From a virus, in IMG/VR virus record IMGVR_UViG_3300042922_000116, positions 1-38,603 of that record: 38,603 nucleotides of DNA. One strand, given 5' to 3'. Position numbers and translations under genes: made by a program. Each line of letters begins with the position of its first letter. Positions within the stretch are counted from its first letter, which is position 1. Below the pieces are notes generated by a model, which searched no databases, was not told the DNA's origin, and worked only from the letters and a program-made list of their open reading frames with translations. Below are positions 1-38,603 of the stretch, piece by piece.

Positions 1-1239
1 ACCGAGGGAGAAATTGATGCCCTCACAGCTAGTCAAGTCCAAGGTAACAAGTACCCTACGGTCTCCTTACCATGTGGAGCAAAGTCCGCGAAGAAAACCT
101 TTAAGGCTCAGTCGGAATGGCTAGAGAGCTTTGAGGAAGTCGTGACAATGTTCGATATGGATGAGGAAGGTGAAAAGGCCCGTAAGGAAGTCGAAGGTAT
201 TTTGTCTCCGGGTAAGCTCAGACACTCCTATCTACCTCTTAAGGACCCGAACGAGTGTTTGACAGAGGGTAGAGCAGATGAGATTACAAAGGCTATTTGG
301 GCCGCTAAGGTTTATAAGCCTGGAGGTATTCGCAATGGTGCAGAGCTGTGGGACAAGATGAATGAAAAGCAGCAAAGTACCTATTCTATTCCGTGGCCGT
401 GGGAAAACCTTGACATCCAAAAGATGACCCAAGGAATCCGCATGGGTGAAATGCTACTGCTAACAGCCGGGACAGGTATAGGCAAATCTACGGTATTCCG
501 AGAGCTTGCTTATTATATGGGAGTAGTCTTCCCGGAAGCCTTTAAGGTAGGCATGATCTTCCTTGAGGAACAAAACACAGAAACCGCAATGTCTCTAATG
601 TCTCTCCACGTTAACAAAAGACTTCACCTTGCTTGGAACTCATTGGGTGCTGAGGAACGGAGAAGGGCCTTTGAGGAGACCTTAGGAACTGAGCGGTTTA
701 TCTTTTATGACCACTTTGGGAGCCTTGATGGAGACTCCTTGCTCCAAAAGATTCGCTATATGGCAACTGCGGAAGGGTGTAAGTTCATCTTCCTAGACCA
801 TGTGTCAATAGCTATAAGCGGCCTTGAGAGCAACAATGAGCGGAAAGACATTGATGTCCTTATGACTAACCTTATGTCTCTAATTCAGGAGACCGGAGTA
901 GGGATTGGTGTCATCTGCCACTTAAAGAAAACAGAGAGCAAACAGGAACCCTTTGAGGAAGGTGGTCGGATTTCTCTTGATGACCTTCGCGGTTCTGGCA
1001 CTCTGAAGCAAATACCTAATACAATCGTTGCGGGTGAACGGAATCAGCAAGACGATAACGAGAAATCCAAAAACCTTGTACGCCTCAGGCTCCTTAAGTG
1101 TCGCTTCACGGGTAAGACCGGGATCGCTGGACACCTTTGGTTCAATGAAGAGACCGGAAGGCTTGAGTCCGTGGAAAAGGTAGAGGAGTTCCTTGGGGAC
1201 TGTGAGGGTGAAGACCTTAGCGGTCCTTCTGAATTTTAA
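1..1239 (+). CDS. Primase-helicase, T7 gp4-like, 5' end missing
   Basis: The frame is open from base 1, so the gene begins upstream of the window. The visible part starts in the Toprim core: TEGEIDALT at bases 1-27 and FDMDEEG at about 148-168 carry the conserved acidic residues of the primase active site. The helicase follows, with Walker A GTGIGKST at about 472-495 and a Walker B-like FIFLDH at about 784-801. In T7 this protein unwinds DNA as a hexameric ring and lays down RNA primers for gp5 polymerase. About 412 residues are present; T7 gp4 has 566, so the zinc-binding domain and first part of the primase are missing. A GTG at 142 is an internal codon, not a start. The assignment is firm; only the N-terminus is unknown. 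Confidence 0.95.
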   Translation, partial: TEGEIDALTASQVQGNKYPTVSLPCGAKSAKKTFKAQSEWLESFEEVVTMFDMDEEGEKARKEVEGILSPGKLRHSYLPLKDPNECLTEGRADEITKAIWAAKVYKPGGIRNGAELWDKMNEKQQSTYSIPWPWENLDIQKMTQGIRMGEMLLLTAGTGIGKSTVFRELAYYMGVVFPEAFKVGMIFLEEQNTETAMSLMSLHVNKRLHLAWNSLGAEERRRAFEETLGTERFIFYDHFGSLDGDSLLQKIRYMATAEGCKFIFLDHVSIAISGLESNNERKDIDVLMTNLMSLIQETGVGIGVICHLKKTESKQEPFEEGGRISLDDLRGSGTLKQIPNTIVAGERNQQDDNEKSKNLVRLRLLKCRFTGKTGIAGHLWFNEETGRLESVEKVEEFLGDCEGEDLSGPSEF

Positions 1240-17039: not shown

Positions 17040-19376
17040 ATGGCGAGTAATGTATCCAATGCGATAGGAACGCAAAGGCAATTTTCAGGAGTCCCGCAGG
17101 ATACCTACGCGAAAAGACTAATACAGTCCGATTCTTCTTCTCAAGCTGCGGCTGCAACTCGCGGGGTAGGGATGCAACTGGCTCAATCCTTAGGAGTCCT
17201 TGGGGAGGCCATAGGAACCTTAGGATTCCAGCAGGAAAAAGATAAAGAGAAAATAGGGATCGCTAAGGCTGAGGAGATAGCCGCAGGACAAACTGAGGAG
17301 AACTGGAGAAAACTATCTGCTATTGATATGATCTCGGCCTCAGGTGCTGTGGATACTGCTGATAATCCTTATGCAATCTCTATGATCGAGAGGATGCGTG
17401 GGAAGTTCTTATCCTCTCGCGCTCGACTCTCTTATGAAACTGAGGTCATCCAAAAGGAAGGCCATTCGAAGACTGCTGATGAGGAGGTCTCTCGTTATAA
17501 CAAATATATGCAGGAACACTTTGGGACTTCCTCAGGAGCCTCCTCAGACCTTGAGGCATTTCAAAAGGGCTTTTGGGATAATCATGCGGTAGATCAGGTA
17601 GGCGTTGCAGATAAACAGATCAAATGGTCTTCTCAACAGATGGACGCAATTCGTCAAGGAGAGACCTCAGCAACCTTAAGGATCGGCTCAGAGAAGTGGG
17701 GAAATACCCCTAAGGAAGACCTAGCGGCCTCTTGGAACTCTATTATGGCAGACAATCGGATCGCTAATGCTTCCATCCCGGAACGCATACAGCAAATCAA
17801 GGGAGCCGCTCAGGACTTCGTACAGAGTACAGGAGACCATGAGAAGCTCACTTATATCTTGGATAATGTCACTATTGGGGTGGATGGGTCCGGTAAGGAA
17901 ATTAAAGCGTCCTCTGTTATTTCCCCTGAGGACTTCCGACAGGAAGCCACTATCAGAACTCGGCAGATATTCGGGGAACGCCTTCAGGGAGACCTAAAGA
18001 AACTCTCAGGTATGTCTGTACCGGAAATGAATAAGTGGTTCGAGGATACCCAAAGGGATGATCCTAAGTGGTTCGGCACGGTGGTAGATTATAGACCAGG
18101 ACTGGTTAACCAAAGGACAAAACTTGAGGAGGATCAGAAGCGAGAAGCACTCAAACTGTCAATTACTCAGCACGTTCGCAAGCAGTCCTTTGGAGTCCTT
18201 GATAGTCAACTGAAGGCATATCTCAACGGTAACACTCACGATGCCCAAGGGTTCCTTAAGGCTACTTCCTTTAGTGGTCTCCCTACGCTTGAGTATGATG
18301 TCCCTGATGAAAAAGGTGGGACAACCTCTAAGAAACACTCTTGGAAGAAAGAAGATGTCTTCAGTTTCATTGACCATCATATTCAGACTATCAAAGCTGA
18401 TGGAAGCCTAACGGATGAAGAGAAATCTGCTCAGGTTCTTCAGGTCCTCCAATGGGGTCCTGCGGAGAACTACAGGGATAGCGTGAAGTCCAGCTTAGGA
18501 ATGGCCCTGGATACCCTTACGGTTGACAAACTGAAAACCGATGGACAAGGCAAAGCAAACCTCACTCCTCAGATGCAGGATGCCTTAAGGATGTACCAAA
18601 CGGACCCTGAGGCTTCCCTTACGATCCTTGGAGAAAAGAATATATCTGACCTGGATCATCTCCAGCTTTTACTTCAGGCTGAAGGAGATGAGAGGGCTGC
18701 TGTGAGTCAGTTTGCACAGGTAAGAGATAAGCGTAAGGATAAGGATGCTGTAAAGGCAGCAAGCGGACAGGTTCAACACTATCTATCTACCGCTACAGTT
18801 ACAGGCTTTAGAGACATCTCAGGGAAGGAGCTTAGTGTAAACACTTCTATAATGTCGAATTACTCCCTGATGAAGCGTATTAAAGTCCTCGCTGAGGATA
18901 GAGTTCTTGGAGGGATGGCCCCTGATAAAGCTGTAGAGGTCGCTAAGGAAAAAGTCCGGGCAAATACTTATATCTATAAAGACACAGCGATTCCTCGGAG
19001 TATCTTTAATGGCATTGACTCTGAACACAGGATAACTGTAGGGCAGCAGGTCCTTGATTATTACGTTCAGGACTTCGCTAATCAGACCGGACTTGACTCT
19101 AAGTTTATCGCTACGGAATGGGACATAGACCGGAATGTTTTTGTTGTCTCAGGAGGTGGAGGTCATGTGAGGTATACCCTGAATGATATTGCATATAGTG
19201 GCAATTATCTCCTTCAGGAAAACTCGAAGAATCCTGGAGGCAGAAACATTGAACTCCTGGAGGCTCAGGAAGCCAATGCCATGAGGAGACCAATAACTCC
19301 TCCGGTGTCTGATGAACTCAATATAGCTGGATGGGACCCGAATGTCACTCAAGCGAATCGCGGAGATAGACCTTAG
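17040..19376 (+). CDS. Internal virion protein C, T7 gp15-like
   Basis: The 778-residue length (T7 gp15 is 747), position between gp14 and gp16, and mainly helical Gln/Lys-rich sequence identify it. The N-terminus (QRQFSGVPQDTYAKRLIQSDSS ... LAQSLGVLGEAIGTL) matches the start of this family. In T7 gp15 forms the periplasmic tunnel with gp16 for DNA ejection. GGAGG at 17030-17034 precedes the ATG. Confidence 0.88.
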   Translation: MASNVSNAIGTQRQFSGVPQDTYAKRLIQSDSSSQAAAATRGVGMQLAQSLGVLGEAIGTLGFQQEKDKEKIGIAKAEEIAAGQTEENWRKLSAIDMISASGAVDTADNPYAISMIERMRGKFLSSRARLSYETEVIQKEGHSKTADEEVSRYNKYMQEHFGTSSGASSDLEAFQKGFWDNHAVDQVGVADKQIKWSSQQMDAIRQGETSATLRIGSEKWGNTPKEDLAASWNSIMADNRIANASIPERIQQIKGAAQDFVQSTGDHEKLTYILDNVTIGVDGSGKEIKASSVISPEDFRQEATIRTRQIFGERLQGDLKKLSGMSVPEMNKWFEDTQRDDPKWFGTVVDYRPGLVNQRTKLEEDQKREALKLSITQHVRKQSFGVLDSQLKAYLNGNTHDAQGFLKATSFSGLPTLEYDVPDEKGGTTSKKHSWKKEDVFSFIDHHIQTIKADGSLTDEEKSAQVLQVLQWGPAENYRDSVKSSLGMALDTLTVDKLKTDGQGKANLTPQMQDALRMYQTDPEASLTILGEKNISDLDHLQLLLQAEGDERAAVSQFAQVRDKRKDKDAVKAASGQVQHYLSTATVTGFRDISGKELSVNTSIMSNYSLMKRIKVLAEDRVLGGMAPDKAVEVAKEKVRANTYIYKDTAIPRSIFNGIDSEHRITVGQQVLDYYVQDFANQTGLDSKFIATEWDIDRNVFVVSGGGGHVRYTLNDIAYSGNYLLQENSKNPGGRNIELLEAQEANAMRRPITPPVSDELNIAGWDPNVTQANRGDRP

Positions 19377-19388
19377 GAGGATGAATAA

Positions 19389-22300
19389 ATGGCAGATGTA
19401 ATGAAACTCCTTTCAGCCCTCTCGGGACAGGAGAGCAGCGGAGACCCTCAAGCATACAACTCCTTAGGTCTCGCTATGGGTAAATATCAATTCCAGCAGG
19501 GGACTTGGGATGGAGCTGCTAAGATGGCAAGCCGGGAGGACCTCGTAGGGGTAGACCCTCGGGAAGTCGCTGAGGTAGACCAGGACCATGTAGCAGGGAC
19601 ATACGCTAATTATCTCCTGGAGAAATCTGGAGGAGACCTTGGGTATGTTGCAGCAGCGTGGTATGCAGGGGAAACTAATGCAGATGAATATTCTAGGCAA
19701 GGCCGCTTCCCAACAGCGAGGGAAGAAGGAGACCATCCTTCAGTAGCTGAGTATGTCCAACAGGTAAAGCAGAGATATAACGATGGTTCCTATGCTCTTG
19801 ATGGTGTCTTCAATCGGTCTACTGATCCATTTGGTGCTAAAGCTCCTAGTGTCCCTACAATAGAACCTCAGCCTCAGTCATTCCTCGGGGAGACCAAAGA
19901 TAAATTCCTTGATTCTCTCTATGATTCTACTCTTGTAGGAGCCGCGAGGACTGCTTGGGTGGGGGCTTCGAGTGTAAATTCTTATGCTGATCGGTCCTTC
20001 CAGGTCTCTCAGGAAGATGTTGACTATGTAACTAAGGCACTTCCTGGAGACTTCATTGCTCAGAAGTTTGTCTTGATGAACGCGCGGAATCGGGAGCATC
20101 TTTCAAGGCTTACCTTAATGAAGCAAGAGGATGAAGCAAGGAGACAAAGGGTCGATAGTTATTCGATGGGATTGTCCAGCATCGGAACCATTGCAGGAGC
20201 CATAGCAGACCCTTTGACTTTCCTTCCGCTTGGACAAGAAGCAGTCATCTTGAAAACCTTAGGACGCTTAGGAACCTCAACAGCCTCTAAGATGGCCTTA
20301 AGTAAACTCGCTAAGTATGGAGAATTAGCAGCGACTAATGCGGCCCTTAATGTAGCCGAAAGAAAAGGTGCTGAACATTTCTCTGGGTACGAGCAGGACT
20401 ATACCTCAGCGGCTCTTATAGGAGGTGTGGCAGGTGCAGGGCTAGGGATGCTTGGAGACCTTGCACGTTCCTTTGCGAACAAGAAGGGACTCCAAAAGGT
20501 TAACGCTGCTTTACTCAATGCTGAAGATCATGCAATCCTTCAAGCTGCTGATGGTCCTTTGCCTTCCGGTGTCCCTAAGGATACCCGAGGAATACTGCAG
20601 GAACTCCATGACCCTAACTTTACTCATACCTCAGAGAATCTCTCGAAGCTGATTGAGAAAGATATGGTCTATGTAGTTTCCAAGGCAGACCTTCCGAACC
20701 TCGCGAAACGCTTAGGGGTTAACATAGAGGAAGGAGCTAAAGCGTTCCATAAGGCTGATGAAGGTTTTACTGTTATTGTAAAAGACAATCTTCCTACTAA
20801 CTATAACCTGGATAATCTTCTCGCTCATGAGATGGGTGTCCATCGTTTCAAAGAGGTAATGGGAGAAGACGCTTACAGTCAACTCATGGAGTCTGTGCGG
20901 AAGAATGTTGAGAACCCGCCTGATGAGGAATGGTTAAGAGCTATCAAAGCTGTACCTGATGGTGGTCTTGAGGAAGTTCTAGGATACTATGTAGAACATA
21001 GTGGTCTTGATAATAGTCTTCTAGGAAGTGTCAGGGGAAAGATAAACCTAGGTCTGCGAAAATTGGGACTTACTAAAGACCTCAATAATGCAGAAATCAA
21101 GGACTTTGTTAAGCGGTCACTTGATGTCCAAATTGAACAAGCTCAAGGATACCATATGATGCCTGATGGTTCTGTGGTAATGAATGGGCTTAAGTATTCC
21201 AATGCGAACCTTTTCAATCCTGAAGGAATCCTTGCGGACCAATTCGCTGCTGATACTAAGGCAATCACGCAGGGAGCCTTTCCGAAGCTCCTCAGAGGTA
21301 TTGGACAACGTATGGAGGCAGGAGGATTCGCAGGGACAATTCACGGTATCCTCTATAACTCAAAGTCTCACATGGGGCGTAAGATAGCTTCCTTGATATT
21401 CCATGATGCCCGGATGCGAGGAACAGCCGACAGCCTTGTGATGCCTGTAGAGAAAATGAAGGAGACCATAAACAACCGCTTGAGTAAATTCTATGGAGAC
21501 TTCATGGATATTCGCTCTGAGGCTCTCTTTGGGAGTTCCGCAGGGGATCGCCTTGTCAATGCTCCTAAGGTAACGAATCTCACGGCTCACCTTCTGGACT
21601 TCAATAGGCAGGTTCGGGAAGCCTTCAATGCAACCTACACGAACAACCATGCAGGTCTCACGGGACGCTCATGGTCTCCTGAGGTGATGAAGGCTGCTAA
21701 GGTTCTTAAGGACCTCCGGGAGGATATGATCGAGATAGGCAAGCGATCCTCAGAGATGTTTGGGACCCAAGGGGAGAACCTTATCGCTAAGGATTGGAAA
21801 GCTTGGGATGATGAACTATGGAGAGTCATGGATGACGATAAATGGTTAACCTTTCATAATAAATTCCCTACTGTTAAAGCTGCTGAGGACTTCCTTGCAG
21901 AATATGCCAAGCGAGCAGTCAAGCGGGACATTATGGAACAAAAGCTGCTTATCCAAAAGGTTAAGGAATGGGAAGAGTCTCAGAAACTTTGGGAGCCTAA
22001 GTATGTTTCCTGGAAGAAGGAAATGGATGCTTGGGAGACTAAGGTTGAACAGCTTGCAGCGAGAGATGAGAAGAAATATCAGACTCGCTTAAAGAAGCAT
22101 GAGGAAGCCCTTGAGGAATGGAAGCTGGACATCGCGACTGCTCCTAAAGGAACCCCTAAGCCTCCTAAACCGAAGAAACCAGAAAGACCTCCTGCTACTC
22201 CTAAACCTGAGAAACCTAAGGCTCCTAAGGAACCCGGAGACAAACCTACTCAGGTGACTCCTGAGGAACTCCAGCAGCACATTGACGAGGAAGCAAAGGG

Positions 22301-24044
22301 ATGGTCTAAAGGAATCATCGACCGGGACCATAGCAACCTTGAACTCCTTAAGGAAGGCTATCACAATGAAGGGGCTATCTCCTTTATGCGTGAGCGGCTC
22401 CCAATGGATACCTCAACTCGCCTAATGACTCCTTGGGGCGAAGAGTTCTCCTTTGATATTCACCTGCGGGATGATGACTTGGACCGCATAGTTCCTAAGA
22501 TTATCAATAGGTTCTCAGGGGAAGCAGCCTTGAAGAATGTCTTTGCGACTCCTGATGCCTTTAGGACAGCCAGAGGAACCCTTGAGAGTCAACTGCTTCA
22601 CGCTGAAGGGCAAGGAGCAATCTCTAAGTCTCAAATGGCCCGAGAGCTAGGAGCCTTCGATGATGGAATCGCTATGCTCCGAGGGACAAATAGCTCTAAG
22701 GACCCCAGGGGAGCTTGGGATGCTTTTACTCGTCTGTTTACGAACCTCAGTTATTCTCAGAATGGTTCAAACATGGGCTTTAATCAACTCGGGGAAGTTG
22801 GAGGACCGCTTGCTTATTCTGGAGGCAGAGCATTGTTTCATCTCTTCCCGGCCCTTGCGGATCATGTGAGGTCCTTGAGGAGCGGTAAGGGAATAGCTGA
22901 TGCAGTCCGTGAGGCAGAGTATAGAGCCTTTGGAGATACCTTGGAGTCTCGTATTTGGCAGCGTAGTTTTCAATCAAGGGTCTTTAAGGAAGTAACAGCC
23001 GCAGGGGACAGAATGAGATCATTGGATACCATAAACACTGGCTTTAATTTTGCTAGTCGATTGGTCTCTCAAATCAACTTGCTTCCTGTACTGACCGATA
23101 GGATGGTCCGAGGAGCGAGAGCTGATGCCATCGCGGACTCCTTAGAGTGGGCTGGAGGGAAAGAGTTTAGTAAACTCAGGAACCCCTTTAGTCCTACAAA
23201 ACTTAAAGGGGCTGGAGTGTCTCCTGAGTTAGTCCCTCAGATCAAGCAGGACCTTCAAAGGTACTTCTTGGATAGCCTTGAGTCTCCTAAGCTCTCCGAA
23301 TGGGCCGAAGCGAACTCTGAGACTTACTGGAAATGGATAAGTCTAATAGACAATCAAGGCATGAGGGCAATCCAACAGAACACCATAGGAAACAAGAATG
23401 TCCTTAAGGATGCTAACCTGTTCACAAGGATGCTCTTTCAGTTCAAAGACTTCACGCTTAAGGCAATCAATGGGCAGACCTTAAGGGCCTTGACGAGTCG
23501 AGAGATTGATGATGGTCTAGCTGCTCTGTTCTCTATGGGTACAAATACGCTTGTCTACGCAGGGTTAACCAAAGGGAGAGCAATGGCTTACTTCCCGAAT
23601 GACGAGGCCAAACAGCAGGAATACCTGGACGCTCGGCTAACTCCAGGGAAACTGGCAGGGGCCGCTCTGCTCCGTGGGGTTATCACTGGGTCGGCCTTGA
23701 GTTTTGGTATGGATGCATATGAGGCTGCTACAGGTAGTCAGTCCTTCAGGACAACTGTAGACCGTACAGCGCAGTTCAAAGGAAAACAGCAGGAAGGACT
23801 GAAGGAGCCTAAGGATGCCCTTGGGGACTCCTTAGCTCAACTTCCAGCCGCCCGAGCTTCCTTTGGGTCTGCCTATACAGGCTATAAGGTTGGCAAGAGT
23901 TACCTTGAGACCAACCAGTTAACGCAGAGGGACCTTAAGGAACTCTATAGGCTCCTTCCTCTCCAGAACTTTCTGCCGATGGTCTACATTAGCAGTATGC
24001 TTGTGGAAGAGACAGGGCTACCTAAAGACAAACTGAAGAAATAA
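19389..24044 (+). CDS. Internal virion protein D, T7 gp16-like, with lytic transglycosylase and zincin-like domains
   Basis: 1551 residues, longer than T7 gp16 (1318). Residues about 1-130 are a soluble lytic transglycosylase domain (SALSGQESSGDPQAYN with catalytic Glu15; GKYQFQQGTW; YVAAAWYAG) that opens peptidoglycan for DNA entry. Residues 133-149 carry GSYALDGVFNRSTDPFG, which recurs in the secreted protein at 32.3 kb. Around residues 470-510 is LLAHEMGVHRFKEVMGEDAY, resembling a metallopeptidase-like module of phage polyvalent proteins (HExGxH). A Lys/Pro/Glu-rich linker lies near 900-960. The C-terminal 500 residues resemble the gp16 membrane/tunnel region. GGAGG at 19376-19380 precedes the ATG. 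Confidence 0.93.
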   Translation: MADVMKLLSALSGQESSGDPQAYNSLGLAMGKYQFQQGTWDGAAKMASREDLVGVDPREVAEVDQDHVAGTYANYLLEKSGGDLGYVAAAWYAGETNADEYSRQGRFPTAREEGDHPSVAEYVQQVKQRYNDGSYALDGVFNRSTDPFGAKAPSVPTIEPQPQSFLGETKDKFLDSLYDSTLVGAARTAWVGASSVNSYADRSFQVSQEDVDYVTKALPGDFIAQKFVLMNARNREHLSRLTLMKQEDEARRQRVDSYSMGLSSIGTIAGAIADPLTFLPLGQEAVILKTLGRLGTSTASKMALSKLAKYGELAATNAALNVAERKGAEHFSGYEQDYTSAALIGGVAGAGLGMLGDLARSFANKKGLQKVNAALLNAEDHAILQAADGPLPSGVPKDTRGILQELHDPNFTHTSENLSKLIEKDMVYVVSKADLPNLAKRLGVNIEEGAKAFHKADEGFTVIVKDNLPTNYNLDNLLAHEMGVHRFKEVMGEDAYSQLMESVRKNVENPPDEEWLRAIKAVPDGGLEEVLGYYVEHSGLDNSLLGSVRGKINLGLRKLGLTKDLNNAEIKDFVKRSLDVQIEQAQGYHMMPDGSVVMNGLKYSNANLFNPEGILADQFAADTKAITQGAFPKLLRGIGQRMEAGGFAGTIHGILYNSKSHMGRKIASLIFHDARMRGTADSLVMPVEKMKETINNRLSKFYGDFMDIRSEALFGSSAGDRLVNAPKVTNLTAHLLDFNRQVREAFNATYTNNHAGLTGRSWSPEVMKAAKVLKDLREDMIEIGKRSSEMFGTQGENLIAKDWKAWDDELWRVMDDDKWLTFHNKFPTVKAAEDFLAEYAKRAVKRDIMEQKLLIQKVKEWEESQKLWEPKYVSWKKEMDAWETKVEQLAARDEKKYQTRLKKHEEALEEWKLDIATAPKGTPKPPKPKKPERPPATPKPEKPKAPKEPGDKPTQVTPEELQQHIDEEAKGWSKGIIDRDHSNLELLKEGYHNEGAISFMRERLPMDTSTRLMTPWGEEFSFDIHLRDDDLDRIVPKIINRFSGEAALKNVFATPDAFRTARGTLESQLLHAEGQGAISKSQMARELGAFDDGIAMLRGTNSSKDPRGAWDAFTRLFTNLSYSQNGSNMGFNQLGEVGGPLAYSGGRALFHLFPALADHVRSLRSGKGIADAVREAEYRAFGDTLESRIWQRSFQSRVFKEVTAAGDRMRSLDTINTGFNFASRLVSQINLLPVLTDRMVRGARADAIADSLEWAGGKEFSKLRNPFSPTKLKGAGVSPELVPQIKQDLQRYFLDSLESPKLSEWAEANSETYWKWISLIDNQGMRAIQQNTIGNKNVLKDANLFTRMLFQFKDFTLKAINGQTLRALTSREIDDGLAALFSMGTNTLVYAGLTKGRAMAYFPNDEAKQQEYLDARLTPGKLAGAALLRGVITGSALSFGMDAYEAATGSQSFRTTVDRTAQFKGKQQEGLKEPKDALGDSLAQLPAARASFGSAYTGYKVGKSYLETNQLTQRDLKELYRLLPLQNFLPMVYISSMLVEETGLPKDKLKK

Positions 24045-29972: not shown

Positions 29973-31541
29973 ATGGCATTAAATGTAGCAATATGTTGTC
30001 GGCTGTCTGAGGAGGATAAAAACAAACAGACAGGTATTATAGACAGTGAAAGCATTCAAAATCAAAAATCCATGCTTATATCATATGCAGTAGAGCGCGG
30101 GTGGGTAGTCTATGACATCTATAGCGATGATGATTACTCAGGAGCTGATAGGGACCGTCCAGCTTTCAAAAGACTTATTAGAGACGCAGAGGATCGTAAG
30201 TTTGATATTGTCCTTTGCAAATCTCAATCTCGCTTCACAAGGGAGCTTGAGTTAGTCGAGAAGTACCTTCATCACCTCTTCCCACTTTGGGGAATCCGCT
30301 TTGTAAGCATCGTAGACAACGCAGACACAGAGGTAAAAGGTAATAAGAAGTCAAGGCAAATTAATGGTCTTATTAACGAGTGGTATATCGAAGACCTCTC
30401 AGAGGATATTAAGAAGGTATTGACAGACAAACGCAAGAAGGGTCTTCATATCGGCGCGTTCGTTCGGTATGGATACCAAAAGGACCCAAACCGAAAAGGC
30501 CACATAATCATTGATGAGGAAGCGGCTCAAGTTGTTAGAGAGATATTCACACTATATGCCTCTGGTTATGGTAAGCACACCATAGCGCGTTTATTGAACG
30601 CTCGGGGTATCCCAAACCCTACAACCTATAAACAGTTGAAGGGGATTCATTATCAACAATCAAGGCATCAGCACAGTCCTTTCTGGAGTTATCATGTAAT
30701 CTCTGAGACATTAGTTAATGAAATCTATAGAGGACATATGGTACAAGGTAGGGTAGCCAGTATATCCTATAAGACCCAAAAGAGTCGTAAGGTCCCTAAG
30801 GATAAGTGGCTGATTGTAAAGAACACACACGAGCCTATCATCAGTGAACAACTATGGAACACAGTACAGGCCCTTAACAAACACACAGCTAAACCTTGTA
30901 GTACAGGGATTGTCTCTATCTTCGCAGGGAAGGCCAAATGCCAACACTGCGGGTACGCCTTAAAGAACCAAAGGAAAAGCAATAGCGACTCTCGCTATCT
31001 AACCTGCACAACACGCCTTAACAGAAGCGTAGATGCTTGCCCTGGAACCTTTATCGCTGTTAAGACATTAGAACAGAACGTCCTAGAGCAGCTTCAAGGG
31101 ATTCTCAAGGAGTTCCTTAATGAGGAAGAGACAGAGCAACAGATACGCCTACGGAGTTCCATTGAGGAACAGCAGGTGAACCTTCGCTCATCATTAGCTA
31201 CATACGAGCAGAAGAACGCTGAGTATTCTAAAGGTATCAAAGAGCTTTACCTTGACAAAACCAGAGGAATACTTACAGAAGGAGAATTCCTCCATCTGCA
31301 ACGAGAGTTATCAAAAGACAAAGAAAAGGTTGCAAAACTTATCACAGCCACACAGGATCAAATAAGTTCCTTAGAGTCTAAAAAGAGTACAACAAGAACC
31401 CGTAGGGATATCCTTGAGAAATATAAGGAAACCTCTTCACTTGATAGGGTTATGATAGTAGAACTCATTGACACTATCTTAATCGGGAAAAGAAACCCTG
31501 AGACTAAAAAGTGGCCTATAGAAATCAAATGGAGTCTATAG
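29973..31541 (+). CDS. Large serine recombinase (phage integrase)
   Basis: 522 residues. The N-terminal resolvase domain shows AICCRLSEEDK with the probable catalytic Ser12, SIQNQKSMLISYA, YSDDDYSGADRDRPAFKRL and QSRFTRE. A recombinase domain follows (GYGKHTIARLLNARGIPNP). The zinc ribbon is CQHCGYALKN ... CTTRLNRSVDAC, with a long coiled coil near residues 395-475, as in phiC31/TP901-type integrases. It would integrate the phage at attB. GAGGAG (29954-29959) is 13 bases from ATG 29973 but only 5 from an out-of-frame ATG at 29965 encoding MSKWH-stop, so initiation may be damped. Genuine T7 lacks any integrase. Confidence 0.95.
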   Translation: MALNVAICCRLSEEDKNKQTGIIDSESIQNQKSMLISYAVERGWVVYDIYSDDDYSGADRDRPAFKRLIRDAEDRKFDIVLCKSQSRFTRELELVEKYLHHLFPLWGIRFVSIVDNADTEVKGNKKSRQINGLINEWYIEDLSEDIKKVLTDKRKKGLHIGAFVRYGYQKDPNRKGHIIIDEEAAQVVREIFTLYASGYGKHTIARLLNARGIPNPTTYKQLKGIHYQQSRHQHSPFWSYHVISETLVNEIYRGHMVQGRVASISYKTQKSRKVPKDKWLIVKNTHEPIISEQLWNTVQALNKHTAKPCSTGIVSIFAGKAKCQHCGYALKNQRKSNSDSRYLTCTTRLNRSVDACPGTFIAVKTLEQNVLEQLQGILKEFLNEEETEQQIRLRSSIEEQQVNLRSSLATYEQKNAEYSKGIKELYLDKTRGILTEGEFLHLQRELSKDKEKVAKLITATQDQISSLESKKSTTRTRRDILEKYKETSSLDRVMIVELIDTILIGKRNPETKKWPIEIKWSL

Positions 31542-32024: not shown

Positions 32025-32052
32025 TTGACAAACATTTGTTCTTATCTATATT
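32025..32052 (+). promoter_or_regulatory. Promoter overlapping a partial LexA box
   Basis: TTGACA (32025-32030), a 16-base spacer, TATATT (32047-32052). CAAACATTTGTTCT (32029-32042) differs from GAAC-N4-GTTC by one base and covers the -35/spacer. It probably drives the secreted protein gene at 32289 across a leader of about 230 bases. Confidence 0.55.
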
Positions 32053-32288: not shown

Positions 32289-32810
32289 ATGCTGAAGAGA
32301 ATAGGTCTTTTAGTGGTCTTATTGGTTGCCCTGTGGAGTCCTTTGGGACATGCTGAGGATGTTAATGAAGAATGGAAGCTGCTCTTTGAGGAGGCCACCG
32401 GGAAGGTCTTCATAAATACTGCCTACTTTAAAAGTAATTGGCCTGATAGATTCACTTCGTTGTATTACTCTGTCGATACCTGGGTATTTATAGAGACACC
32501 TAAAATAAACATAAGGCAGCACTGGACAATCAGAACAGAAACAGCTACCGGACAATCAGAAGGAAAACTTCTATATAATAAGGTCTATGAAAAAGGAACC
32601 GACAAGGTAACTACCTTTGAAGTTCCTGAAGAGGTTGCTAAGTGGGAGTATTTTAAGCCTCAATCGTTTCTTAGTAAACTATCTTTAGAAATCATGAAAT
32701 TTGACATCCTGAGACAAGAGAAGCAGGATAAATCAGGCTCCTATTCACTTGATGGAGTCTTTAATCGCTCTACTGATCCCTTTGGTTCAAAGCCTTCTAC
32801 CAATAAATAA
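32289..32810 (+). CDS. Secreted lysogeny-region protein with a C-terminal copy of a gp16 segment
   Basis: 173 residues from ATG 32289, which has AGGAGG at 32276-32281; the longer upstream frame is unlikely because the signal peptide begins here (MLKRIGLLVVLLVALWSPLGHA, cleavage after GHA). The mature domain (EEWKLLFEEATGKVFINTAYF ... WVFIETPK ... HWTIRTETATG) is beta-rich and loosely resembles small exported proteins of didermic Firmicutes (Adhesin_E-like), a weak suggestion. Residues 150-166, GSYSLDGVFNRSTDPFG, match residues 133-149 of the phage gp16-like transglycosylase at 16 of 17 positions. Position beside repressor and recombinase suggests expression in lysogens, possibly for superinfection exclusion. 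Confidence 0.8.
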   Translation: MLKRIGLLVVLLVALWSPLGHAEDVNEEWKLLFEEATGKVFINTAYFKSNWPDRFTSLYYSVDTWVFIETPKINIRQHWTIRTETATGQSEGKLLYNKVYEKGTDKVTTFEVPEEVAKWEYFKPQSFLSKLSLEIMKFDILRQEKQDKSGSYSLDGVFNRSTDPFGSKPSTNK

Positions 32811-32820
32811 GAACATAACA

Positions 32821-32874
32821 AAGGCCCTCCTTAAGGAGTCCACACGGATTCCCTGAGGAGGGCCTTATTTTTTT
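32821..32874. terminator. Bidirectional terminator between convergent genes
   Basis: AAGGCCCTCCT (32821-32831) pairs perfectly with AGGAGGGCCTT (32856-32866) and is followed by ATTTTTTTG on the plus strand. It ends the secreted-protein message and, in reverse, the repressor message. Confidence 0.85.
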
Positions 32875-32882
32875 GTCTCAAT

Positions 32883-33311
32883 TTAGCGCAGGTCCTTACG
32901 AATCCACTCAATCGTATACCCAAGAATGTCAGCTATTTCCAGCACTTCTTTATAAGTAATTGTACCTCTTCTTAATTTATTAGTCAGATTCGCGCTTGAT
33001 GTTGGTCTTCCTCTTTGGGCTAATTCCTCACATACTTCCTGCATGGTTCTACCTTCGCGAGTGATATAGGACTTTATTATATCTCTAAGGTCCTCAGGGT
33101 CTTCTTCTGGAGACTTTAGGCTTTCTGCAGGATTCGCCGGAGGTCTCATTTCCATATTAAACCCTTGATTCGCTAGTTGCTCCATATGTGCATTAACTAG
33201 TTTAGTAACCATCTCTTCTAATGTTTGATGCTGAGGAGTCTTTGTTATATCTTCCTGGTTAACCTGCTGTCTTTCCTTTGCGGGTTCTTTACGACTCTGT
33301 TTCTCGCTCAT
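32883..33311 (-). CDS. Phage repressor-like protein with C-terminal helix-turn-helix
   Basis: This is the only convincing minus-strand gene. The 142-residue product has a polar, probably disordered or coiled N-terminal half (SEKQSRKEPAKERQQ ... MVTKLVNAHMEQLANQ) and a C-terminal Cro/CI-type helix-turn-helix (IIKSYITREGRTMQEVCEELAQ ... SSANLTNKLRRGTITYKEVLEIADILGYTIEWIRK). GGGAGG lies just upstream of the ATG. No LexA/CI Ser-Lys peptidase domain is present, so RecA-stimulated self-cleavage is not expected. It diverges from the early operon across an operator cluster and is the likely lysogeny repressor. Confidence 0.8.
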   Translation of the reverse strand: MSEKQSRKEPAKERQQVNQEDITKTPQHQTLEEMVTKLVNAHMEQLANQGFNMEMRPPANPAESLKSPEEDPEDLRDIIKSYITREGRTMQEVCEELAQRGRPTSSANLTNKLRRGTITYKEVLEIADILGYTIEWIRKDLR

Positions 33312-35656: not shown

Positions 35657-38266
35657 ATGACAACTCAAACGATCCTTAAGGAAACCTCATTCGATCCTAG
35701 CGTGGCCTATGGAGACCTTTACACTAAGCAGCTACGCATTGAGTCAACCTGGAAGCAGTTGGCAGAGGAGAAACTCACGGCCCACCTAACACTCCAAGCG
35801 CAGATAGGCAAGGCCGCGACCTTAAGTACAGGTAAGGGACTCATTGACTTTTCCTGGCCTACAGTCCTTGAGAACGTGAAGGCTTTCCTTGAGCATACCT
35901 TAGGACATAAAAGAGGAGTCCGTCCGGGATACTACTCGATCCTTCAGCAGGTGCAGGAGGTCTTTCCAGACGAGCAGAGGGCTGCGACATTGTTAGCCTT
36001 TAGTGCCTTCTCTACGCTCTTGAATAAAATGTTCATGCACGAATACCGTTTGACGAACCTTTCGGCTGCTGTAGGACACGCTATAGAGGCTGAGGTCCGT
36101 CTTGAGGCATACATTCAAGCTCACCCGGAACACGCAGGGATGACCATTCAGGGCATGGCCCAAAGGGTCCAGGAGTTCTATAAGGAGTACTATGCAGGTC
36201 GCAGAATGGCTCATGCGGGCTTCACATGGAACGGGTGGCAAACGGAGCAAAGGGTCCATTTAGGCGCAAAACTTATAGAGTTGGTCATGCAGGGAAGTGG
36301 TTATTTTGAGATTGTCAACGGCAAAGGACCCAAGGGAAACCATGTGACAGAAGTCCATCCTACCCAATGGCTCCTTGATACATGGCTGAAGAACGAAGAG
36401 AATATCATCTCCAAAGCATCCTCAAGCTGTCCTATGGTAATTCCTCCGGCTCCCTGGAAGGACTTTACTTCAGGGGGATACTATGGAGACCTTAAGGTCC
36501 ACTCTACGCTCCTCCGGGTAGTTACAAGGGACGGAGGGCAAGAAAATGGATTCGTTAGGAAATACATAGATCAACTCAGGCAGGTAGACCTCAGTAGAGT
36601 AGAGGCAGCAATAAACGCAATTCAAGAGACTCCTTGGGTTATCAATAAGGAAGTCCTAGCGGTAGCTCAGGCTATCATTAAGCGAGGCGGGGAACTTGCA
36701 GGACTCCCAAGGACTGAACCCTTACCGGAAGTCCATAGGTTAGTCGGGGACTTCACAGAGGAAGAACTGAAGGCCAATAAAGACAAGGCAGTCCAGCGTA
36801 TCAAGCTAGAGACTAAACGGAAGTCAAAGGCTCTCAGGACCTTAACAGTCCTAAGGACCGCAGAGGAATTCCAGAAGTACGAGCGGATCTACTTCCCGCA
36901 TAATATGGACTTTAGAGGCCGTGTTTACCCGATTCCCTCCTTTAGTCCTCAAGGGGATGACCTGAATAGGGCCTTGCTGCTTTTCGCCGATGCTCCTGAG
37001 TGTCAGACAACGGAAGACATAGGATGGCTAATGGTCCAAGGCGCGAACTGTGCAGGAGTTGATAAGGTCTCCTATGCGGACCGCAGGAAATGGGTCTTGG
37101 ACAATGAGCAACATATTCTAGCGAGCGCAGAGGACCCTTTAGGATACCTCTGGTGGTCTAAAGTAGCCGAAAAGGATTATCCCTTCCAGTTCCTAGCGTT
37201 CTGCTTCGAGTGGAAGCGATGGAAGGAATACGAGGCAACCTATGGGACTCCTAAAGGTTTCCAAACAGGCCTATATGTAGCCTTTGATGGGACCTGCAGT
37301 GGCCTTCAGCACTTCTCAGCGATCCTACGGGACCCTGTAGGAGGACAAGCGGTCAACCTGATTCCTGCTGAGAAGCCTCAGGACATTTACGGCATTGTTG
37401 CATCAAAAGTTAACGTAATATTACAAAAAGACGCAATAGAGGGAACATTAGATGAAGAAAAGGTCTCCCAAAAGACCGGGAAGCCTTACATCAAATATGG
37501 CACGAAGTCCTTAGCGCAACAGTGGTTATCCTATGGGGTAGACCGGAAGGTAACTAAGCGGTCCGTAATGACTCTAGCGTATGGCTCTAAAGAGTACGGG
37601 TTTCGTGAGCAGCTCCTTGAGGACATCATAGAGCCAGCCCTTGATGAAGGCCGAGGCAGCATGTTCATCGACAAAAATCAGTCTGCTGCATACCTAGCGA
37701 AATTAATCTGGCAGGTAGTTCAGAAGGTAGTCATCAAGGCTGTTGAAGGGATGAAGTGGCTCCAGCAGGTGGCCCGGATGGTCTGCAAGCAGGGCCGTGT
37801 AGTGGCCTGGACGACTCCTATGGGTCTCCCGGTGCAGCAGTCTTATATGGAATACAATGTAGAGGAGTTTCGACTTCGATTCCTTGGGAGCAAACGCTAT
37901 ATACACATAGGAAAACCTACAGGAAACATTAACAAACTCCATCAGGCCTCAGGGATCGCTCCTAACTTCATTCATTCGATGGATGCCGCTCACCTTCAGA
38001 AAACCGTAGTAATGGCGAAGGAGGCTGGGATAAATCACTTCACGATGATTCATGACAGTTACGGGTCTCCTGTGGCTCAAGCAGGACGCATGTACAAGAC
38101 TGTAAGACAAGCCTTCATTAATATGTATACGGAAACGGATGTCCTTCAGGACTTCCAAACAGAAATGTCGGTTTACCTTGATGATCCTAAAGAGATTCCT
38201 GAGGTTCCTTATAAAGGAAAACTAGACCTAAATCTGATTGAAAACTCGGAATATATCTTCTCGTAA
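35657..38266 (+). CDS. Single-subunit DNA-directed RNA polymerase, T7 gp1-like
   Basis: 869 residues (T7 is 883). The palm motif A is FDGTCSGLQHFSA with Asp544, motif B is RKVTKRSVMTLAYGSKEYGF (O-helix Lys and the Tyr639 equivalent), and motif C is MIHDSYG with Asp800. The C-terminus ENSEYIFS parallels the FAFA foot of T7. The specificity loop reads SYMEYNVEEFRLRFLGSKRYIHI; where T7 has Asn748 this has Arg, so promoter recognition should differ from T7. It transcribes middle and late phage genes. GAGGAGG at 35639-35645 precedes the ATG. The leader holds a LexA-box promoter and hairpins, which suggests tight control in lysogens. Confidence 0.98.
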   Translation: MTTQTILKETSFDPSVAYGDLYTKQLRIESTWKQLAEEKLTAHLTLQAQIGKAATLSTGKGLIDFSWPTVLENVKAFLEHTLGHKRGVRPGYYSILQQVQEVFPDEQRAATLLAFSAFSTLLNKMFMHEYRLTNLSAAVGHAIEAEVRLEAYIQAHPEHAGMTIQGMAQRVQEFYKEYYAGRRMAHAGFTWNGWQTEQRVHLGAKLIELVMQGSGYFEIVNGKGPKGNHVTEVHPTQWLLDTWLKNEENIISKASSSCPMVIPPAPWKDFTSGGYYGDLKVHSTLLRVVTRDGGQENGFVRKYIDQLRQVDLSRVEAAINAIQETPWVINKEVLAVAQAIIKRGGELAGLPRTEPLPEVHRLVGDFTEEELKANKDKAVQRIKLETKRKSKALRTLTVLRTAEEFQKYERIYFPHNMDFRGRVYPIPSFSPQGDDLNRALLLFADAPECQTTEDIGWLMVQGANCAGVDKVSYADRRKWVLDNEQHILASAEDPLGYLWWSKVAEKDYPFQFLAFCFEWKRWKEYEATYGTPKGFQTGLYVAFDGTCSGLQHFSAILRDPVGGQAVNLIPAEKPQDIYGIVASKVNVILQKDAIEGTLDEEKVSQKTGKPYIKYGTKSLAQQWLSYGVDRKVTKRSVMTLAYGSKEYGFREQLLEDIIEPALDEGRGSMFIDKNQSAAYLAKLIWQVVQKVVIKAVEGMKWLQQVARMVCKQGRVVAWTTPMGLPVQQSYMEYNVEEFRLRFLGSKRYIHIGKPTGNINKLHQASGIAPNFIHSMDAAHLQKTVVMAKEAGINHFTMIHDSYGSPVAQAGRMYKTVRQAFINMYTETDVLQDFQTEMSVYLDDPKEIPEVPYKGKLDLNLIENSEYIFS

Positions 38267-38428: not shown

Positions 38429-38603
38429 ATGGTAACAAAGAAAACCAAAGCGACTCCTGAGGTAGTTCCAGAGGTAACTCCTGAGGTAGTTCCAGAGGTA
38501 ACTCCTGAGGTAGTTCCAGAGGTAACTCCTGAGGTAGTTCCAGAGGTAACTCCTGAGGTAGTTCCAGAGGTAACTCCTGAGGTAGTTCCAGAGGTAACTC
38601 CTG
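38429..38603 (+). CDS. Tandem-repeat protein (TPEVVPEV)n, 3' end missing
   Basis: AAAGGAGG at 38408-38415 precedes ATG 38429. After MVTKKTKA the frame runs through exact copies of the octapeptide TPEVVPEV to the window end, with no stop. Such Pro-Glu-Val repeats form an extended, acidic, rod-like or disordered chain. The position after the early terminator is that of T7 class II genes between polymerase and primase. The total length and the domain that follows are unknown. Confidence 0.6.
   Translation, partial: MVTKKTKATPEVVPEVTPEVVPEVTPEVVPEVTPEVVPEVTPEVVPEVTPEVVPEVTP
38453..38603 (+). repeat. 24-bp perfect tandem repeat, at least 6.3 copies
   Basis: Six identical 24-base units plus seven bases run to the end of the window, each encoding TPEVVPEV. 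Each unit is two related 12-mers (ACTCCTGAGGTA and GTTCCAGAGGTA). Exact identity indicates recent expansion or ongoing slippage, and such a repeat would also break a short-read assembly here. Confidence 0.95.

What the first reader, a model, noticed from the sequence alone, without database searches (positions are those of the whole stretch)
32289..32810. Secreted lysogeny protein ends in a near-copy of a segment of the phage's own ejection transglycosylase
Seen: residues 150-166 of the signal-peptide protein (GSYSLDGVFNRSTDPFG, bases 32736-32786) match residues 133-149 of the gp16-like protein (GSYALDGVFNRSTDPFG, bases 19785-19835) at 16 of 17 positions. The DNA matches at 43 of 51; five differences are silent third-position changes and three lie in the one changed codon (Ala/Ser), a pattern of selection on the peptide. 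Known: superinfection-exclusion proteins such as the lipoprotein Ltp of phage TP-J34 act outside the membrane on injection proteins. Inference: made by the lysogen and exported, this tail may mimic the segment just behind the SLT domain and jam or misassemble the ejectosome of an incoming relative. It could instead be a shared protease site or partner-binding tag.
Basis: partly seen in the sequence, partly recalled or inferred. Interest (0 to 1): 0.82.

Follow-up and report, generated by a model that had tools for sequence, protein, structure and literature searches.

The report
Exported copy of phage's ejection tape
A bacterial virus that can lie dormant in its host carries a small exported protein containing a copy of one short piece of its own DNA-injection machine; a related virus independently carries a copy of the equivalent but different piece of its own machine, which suggests a decoy that stops sister viruses from injecting.

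Summary
P0001 (32289-32810) has a signal peptide and near its C-terminus repeats residues 133-152 of the phage's own gp16 (18 of 20 residues; 16 of 17 in the core; dN/dS about 0.04). It is the only significant match among 1,035 gene pairs of the window. The decisive test was co-variation. The nearest relative found (G001, IMGVR_UViG_2585428088_000001, RNA polymerase 61% identical) has a different peptidoglycan-hydrolase domain and a different following linker in gp16. It also has an unrelated signal-peptide/three-TM-segment protein carrying a copy of its own linker (E about 1e-9). Both copies come from the same place in gp16, directly behind the hydrolase domain. By position this is the start of what corresponds to T7 gp16's 'molecular tape', which cements the gp15 periplasmic tunnel. 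Both genes converge on a putative repressor gene upstream of the RNA polymerase. About 20 other T7-like phages and prophages lack such a pair; the motif was not found elsewhere in IMG/VR or GTDB contigs. Best reading: two independently built exported decoys for self-specific superinfection exclusion, acting on ejectosome assembly. The sequence evidence is strong; the function is inferred, not tested.

The parts
32289..32810 (+). P0001, exported 173-aa protein carrying the copied segment
   Evidence: ORF; AGGAGG Shine-Dalgarno 5' of the ATG; hydrophobic N-terminus; no Pfam, PHROG, NCBIfam, PADLOC or PDB relative
32289..32354 (+). signal peptide by inspection, MLKRIGLLVVLLVALWSPLGHA, residues 1-22
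   Evidence: KR n-region, hydrophobic stretch, A at -1 and G at -3; no lipobox Cys. Not tested with a dedicated predictor
32736..32795 (+). copied segment GSYSLDGVFNRSTDPFGSK(P), residues 150-169
   Evidence: matches own gp16 133-152
19389..24044 (+). gp16-like ejection protein, 1551 aa
   Evidence: phrog_342 E=8e-86; matches T7 gp16 in PDB
19404..19700 (+). SLT transglycosylase domain of gp16, residues 6-104
   Evidence: PF01464 E=0.0024, below gathering score
19785..19844 (+). source segment in gp16, residues 133-152, start of the 'tape' region by position
   Evidence: self-match; hhalign places window 202-358 on T7 269-407, so the stretch between the hydrolase domain and residue 202 corresponds to T7 157-268, which contains the tape 157-228
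19878..19925 (+). SFLGETKDKFLDSLYD, residues 164-179, where homology with the G001 gp16 begins
   Evidence: alignment A2
17040..19376 (+). gp15-like internal virion/tunnel protein, proposed target
   Evidence: synteny with T7 gene 15; 25% identity to the G001 counterpart, 17% to T7 gp15; no PHROG hit
29973..31541 (+). serine integrase
   Evidence: PF00239, PF07508; phrog_95 E=7e-95
32025..32052 (+). sigma-70-like promoter TTGACA-16-TATATT upstream of P0001
   Evidence: 11 of 12 consensus positions; consensus match only
32821..32875 (+). hairpin plus T run between P0001 and the repressor gene, probable terminator
   Evidence: AAGGCCCTCC / GGAGGGCCTT then TATTTTTTT, read from the sequence
32883..33311 (-). 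putative repressor (142 aa), convergent with P0001
   Evidence: PF20075 DUF6471 E=8e-8; weak phrog_4583 transcriptional repressor
35657..38266 (+). T7-like RNA polymerase
   Evidence: 39% identity to Vibrio phage N4 RNA polymerase; 61% to G001

Best explanation
P0001 is a prophage-encoded exported decoy. SHOWN: it carries a near-copy of the segment directly behind the peptidoglycan-hydrolase domain of the phage's own gp16; a relative carries a copy of its own, different segment on an unrelated signal-peptide/membrane protein at the same genomic place. INFERRED: in a lysogen the decoy sits in the periplasm. When a phage with the same gp16 module ejects gp14, gp15 and gp16, the decoy occupies the gp15 site meant for the first part of the gp16 'molecular tape', so the periplasmic tunnel does not assemble and DNA does not enter: self-specific superinfection exclusion. 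Export would keep the decoy away from the phage's own gp15 in the cytoplasm.
For: Self-match in the window, E 2.6e-6, and in G001, E 2.4e-9, each the only pair at E<1e-3 among 1,035 and 780 gene pairs. Both fall at the same gp16 place although the hydrolase domains differ (SLT; PF18013 Phage_lysozyme2 at residues 13-142, E 5.6e-28) and the linkers differ. Carriers are not homologous to each other (BLASTP E 1.2). Both have hydrophobic N-termini; P0003 has three further TM-like stretches and the copy lies before the first. Same layout: copy gene (+), terminator-like hairpin, repressor-like gene (-), upstream of the RNA polymerase. Window 17-mer dN/dS about 0.04; G001 12-mer about 0.09. T7 gp16 157-228 is the tape that cements gp15 (PMC8954989). 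P22 SieA, an inner-membrane exclusion protein, is escaped by changes in ejection proteins gp16 and gp20 (PMC10883804).
Against: No binding, exclusion or expression data. Only two instances; three temperate relatives at about 41-42% RNA polymerase identity and other T7-like prophages lack it. Over the whole G001 match dN/dS is about 0.6. The correspondence to T7 tape residues is by position between anchors; the linkers themselves do not align with T7. AlphaFold models from single sequences are of too low confidence to use. In G001 the first ATG with a Shine-Dalgarno is out of frame with the copy ORF across an A run.
Confidence: 0.55

Rival explanations
1. Same exclusion outcome, other target: the gp16 linker binds a host envelope component (a periplasmic or inner-membrane protein, or cell wall) needed for entry, and the exported copy masks that host partner.
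For: The carriers would sit in the envelope; the segment lies next to the peptidoglycan hydrolase domain; the linker is part of a module that is swapped together with that domain.
Against: T7 structural work assigns this region to gp15 binding (PMC8954989); no host partner is known here.
Confidence: 0.15
2. The segment is a partner-binding or processing tag used by both proteins for something other than exclusion, for example a shared protease site, anchoring of P0001 to the virion core, or regulation of the hydrolase.
For: A short conserved peptide at or near an end of each carrier fits a tag.
Against: A general host protease site would not differ completely between two related phages while still matching within each phage; an exported protein is badly placed for virion assembly.
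Confidence: 0.12
3. Fortuitous capture: illegitimate recombination pasted a piece of gp16 DNA into the variable lysogeny region and it has no function.
For: DNA identity is still about 80% in both phages, so the copies derive from the phage's own gp16 DNA; lysogeny regions are recombination-prone (general knowledge); the G001 copy has many replacement changes over its full length.
Against: Two independent captures of the same gp16 region, both in frame, both in proteins with an export-type N-terminus, both beside the repressor; mostly silent drift in the cores.
Confidence: 0.15

Closest known systems
P22 SieA superinfection exclusion protein (PMC10883804)
   Same: Prophage-encoded envelope protein that blocks DNA injection of related podophages; escape mutations lie in ejection proteins gp16 and gp20.
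   Different: [quoted passage not shown] it acts across P22-like phages, and the two of its three sequence types that were compared had the same specificity.
Ltp of Streptococcus thermophilus phage TP-J34 (PMC3952083)
   Same: Exported lysogeny protein thought to act on an injected phage protein (C-terminus of the tape measure protein).
   Different: A lipoprotein with repeat domains and acidic residues that bind the target; Gram-positive host; broad range; complementary binding, no copied target sequence described.
HK97 gp15 moron exclusion protein (from memory)
   Same: Small prophage-encoded membrane protein that blocks DNA entry, with specificity set by the tape measure protein.
   Different: No copying of its target known to me; different phage type; not compared here.
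T7 gp16 'molecular tape', residues 157-228 (PMC8954989)
   Same: The copied segment sits at the corresponding place in gp16, behind the hydrolase domain.
   Different: There it is part of the ejection protein itself; here a piece is repeated in a separate exported protein.

Membership tests
Superinfection exclusion protein (functional class) | Prophage expression protects the lysogen against related phage at DNA entry | not testable with these tools
   Needs infection experiments
Superinfection exclusion protein (functional class) | Encoded in a temperate phage, in or beside the lysogeny module | tested here: met
   Integrase and putative repressor flank the gene; G001 copy gene also next to a repressor-like gene
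Superinfection exclusion protein (functional class) | Located in the cell envelope | tested here: inconclusive
   Signal-peptide-like N-terminus by hydropathy and inspection only
SieA family | Sequence similarity to SieA proteins | tested here: not met
   No Pfam, PHROG or NCBIfam hit and no phage-database relative; direct SieA alignment not done
SieA family | Inner-membrane multi-pass protein | tested here: not met
   P0001 has only the N-terminal hydrophobic stretch; P0003 of G001 does have three TM-like stretches
Ltp family | Lipoprotein signal with lipobox Cys and repeat domains | tested here: not met
   No Cys at the end of the hydrophobic stretch and no family hit
T7 gp16-type ejection protein (source gene 19389-24044) | N-terminal hydrolase domain plus conserved C-terminal half, position after gp15-like gene | tested here: met
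   phrog_342 E=8e-86; T7 gp16 match 954-1488; synteny
PADLOC anti-phage defence families | Profile match | tested here: not met
   No hit at E up to 10 for P0001 or P0003

The most novel reading that the evidence does not exclude
Temperate T7-like phages achieve self-recognition by mimicry: they duplicate the variable tape segment of their own ejection protein into unrelated exported carriers, so the immunity specificity is copied from the target itself and can be renewed whenever the gp16 module is swapped. It would be a self-versus-other exclusion system without a dedicated recognition protein family.
Probability: 0.42. Interest if true: 0.87.

Novelty: new variant of a known kind. Interest (0 to 1): 0.76.

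Why it matters
Exclusion proteins acting on ejection proteins are known, but how their specificity arises is not. A copied target segment gives a directly testable rule (own linker copied, own kind excluded) and a way to find exclusion genes with no sequence family: search for short self-matches between lysogeny proteins and ejection or tape measure proteins. It also points to a short peptide that might inhibit ejectosome assembly, useful for studying how podophages build the periplasmic tunnel.

Tried and rejected
Relatives of P0001: none by 8-mer patterns in IMG/VR, tblastn in phages and plasmids, or in 18 related virus records. gp16 and terminase single-protein scans found nothing. The motif as a widespread tag: rejected (the scans leave out records near the window). 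More members of the clade: only G001 and a 6.6 kb fragment, L134, that lacks both regions of interest. Sampling 498 genomes for T7-like RNA polymerase gave new loci, of which G412 and a second G024 locus hold gp16-like candidates; none had a pair. Structure prediction: P0001 mean pLDDT 47 and gp16 N-terminus 37, too poor for fold search. Host assignment: integrase closest to a Subdoligranulum plasmid record at 51%, not enough to name a host. Searches for published mimicry-type exclusion found no precedent in the held library. Chance and assembly artefact: rejected, since the copies differ from gp16 DNA by about 14-20%.

Full report
WHAT IS THERE. The window (a 38,603-base IMG/VR virus record) is a T7-like phage: RNA polymerase, helicase, capsid, tail tube, gp14-, gp15- and gp16-like genes, tail fibre, holin, amidase and terminase in T7 order. 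It also has a serine integrase and a putative repressor, so it is probably temperate. Between integrase and repressor lies P0001, a 173-aa protein with a good Shine-Dalgarno and a signal-peptide-like N-terminus, and with no relative in Pfam, PHROGs, NCBIfam, PADLOC, PDB, phage or plasmid records.

E is about 1e-6 to 3e-6 against all ORFs of the phage, and shuffling P0001 gives p about 1e-6. No other gene pair in the window reaches E 1e-3.

CO-VARIATION. Using an RNA polymerase alignment, the nearest record found was G001, IMGVR_UViG_2585428088_000001, 61% identical. Its gp16 begins with a different enzyme, Phage_lysozyme2 PF18013, and continues with an unrelated linker ...SDPASFFFRTGQGAYGVPENTPNPEDPAPPP... 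before homology with the window's gp16 resumes at SF..E(S/T)KDKFLDS.YD. At the start of the G001 record an ORF of 181 aa (P0003) reads ...NDPISLFFRGLGAYGLPENTPNPKDPIPS..., a near-copy of that linker. E is 2.4e-9, or 1e-10 in the gene-only comparison. P0001 and P0003 are not related to each other: in P0001 the segment is near the C-terminus of a soluble-looking exported protein, in P0003 it follows an N-terminal hydrophobic stretch and precedes three TM-like stretches. Both topologies can put the segment in the periplasm. Both genes run towards a repressor-like gene on the other strand, with a hairpin-and-T-run terminator between, and lie upstream of the RNA polymerase gene.

HOW UNUSUAL. Among 15 temperate T7-like phages and prophages only these two have a significant gp16/small-ORF self-match, and both hits fall at the same place in gp16. 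All-against-all comparison of 19,574 gene pairs gave otherwise paralogues, repeats and low-complexity or compositional matches. T7, P-SSP7, Lo5R7ANS, HTVC019P, PPPL-1 and ICP3 show nothing, nor do two further prophages (the G112 stretch examined there showed no recognisable gp16). The motif was not found in IMG/VR (exact 9 residues) or GTDB contigs (relaxed 12 residues); the G001 motif occurs only in G001's own two genes.

ORIGIN. About 80-86% DNA identity between copy and source in both phages means the copies derive from the phage's own gp16 DNA. The window core shows strong constraint (dN/dS about 0.04), the G001 12-residue core too (about 0.09, on very few sites), while the longer G001 match is looser (about 0.6). 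Since carriers and sequences differ, two separate captures, or one capture repeatedly overwritten, are needed.

MECHANISM. In T7, gp16 residues 1-156 are the transglycosylase and 157-228 an extended 'molecular tape' that cements gp15 interfaces of the periplasmic DNA tunnel (PMC8954989). Profile alignment puts window gp16 202-358 on T7 269-407, and the hydrolase domain ends before residue 132, so the copied segment lies at the start of the tape region. This is a placement by position: the linkers themselves are too divergent to align. I infer that the exported copy competes for gp15 in the periplasm and prevents tunnel assembly by phages with the same gp16 module. P22 SieA gives a precedent for exclusion at this step, with escape mutations in ejection proteins (PMC10883804), and Ltp for an exported protein that acts on an injected protein (PMC3952083). 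I found no precedent for a copied target segment, within an open-access library only.

LIMITS. Two cases; no experiment; signal peptides by inspection; structure predictions unusable. In G001 the ATG with a Shine-Dalgarno is out of frame with the copy ORF across a run of A, so its exact start is uncertain. Host unknown.

VERDICT. Observation confirmed; interpretation as an exclusion decoy is supported by co-variation but not shown. New variant of a known kind, interest 0.76.

Noticed in passing
window 1-38603: CCTNAGG occurs 78 times against about 18 expected from a first-order model; T7 30 against 9; the relative G001 has none where about 8 are expected.
   Followed up: partly
window 38429-38596: In-frame 24-base tandem repeat (ACTCCTGAGGTAGTTCCAGAGGTA, coding PEVVPEVT) runs to the end of the record; the record probably breaks in it.
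   Followed up: no
window 1-1239: The helicase ORF is open to the left edge and matches only the helicase part of phrog_239, so the record probably starts inside the primase/helicase gene.
   Followed up: no
L124 121-183: In G001 the copy ORF starts at an ATG without Shine-Dalgarno; an upstream ATG with one is out of frame across a run of A. Homopolymer sequencing error or slippage.
   Followed up: partly
L125 12163-12590 and window 19389-19790: Two related phages have non-homologous N-terminal hydrolase domains in gp16 (lysozyme2 versus SLT) with homology resuming abruptly at SFxxE(S/T)KDKFLDSxYD: a swapped module.
   Followed up: yes
L126-L132 (G002-G004): T7-like phages with tyrosine-type integrases by inspection and gp16 proteins of 1566-1698 aa with again different N-terminal domains; no self-copy.
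   Followed up: partly
window 29973-31541: The serine integrase is closest (51%) to one on an unannotated Subdoligranulum plasmid record, OY725852.1, although the phage is of a type known from Gram-negative hosts.
   Followed up: no
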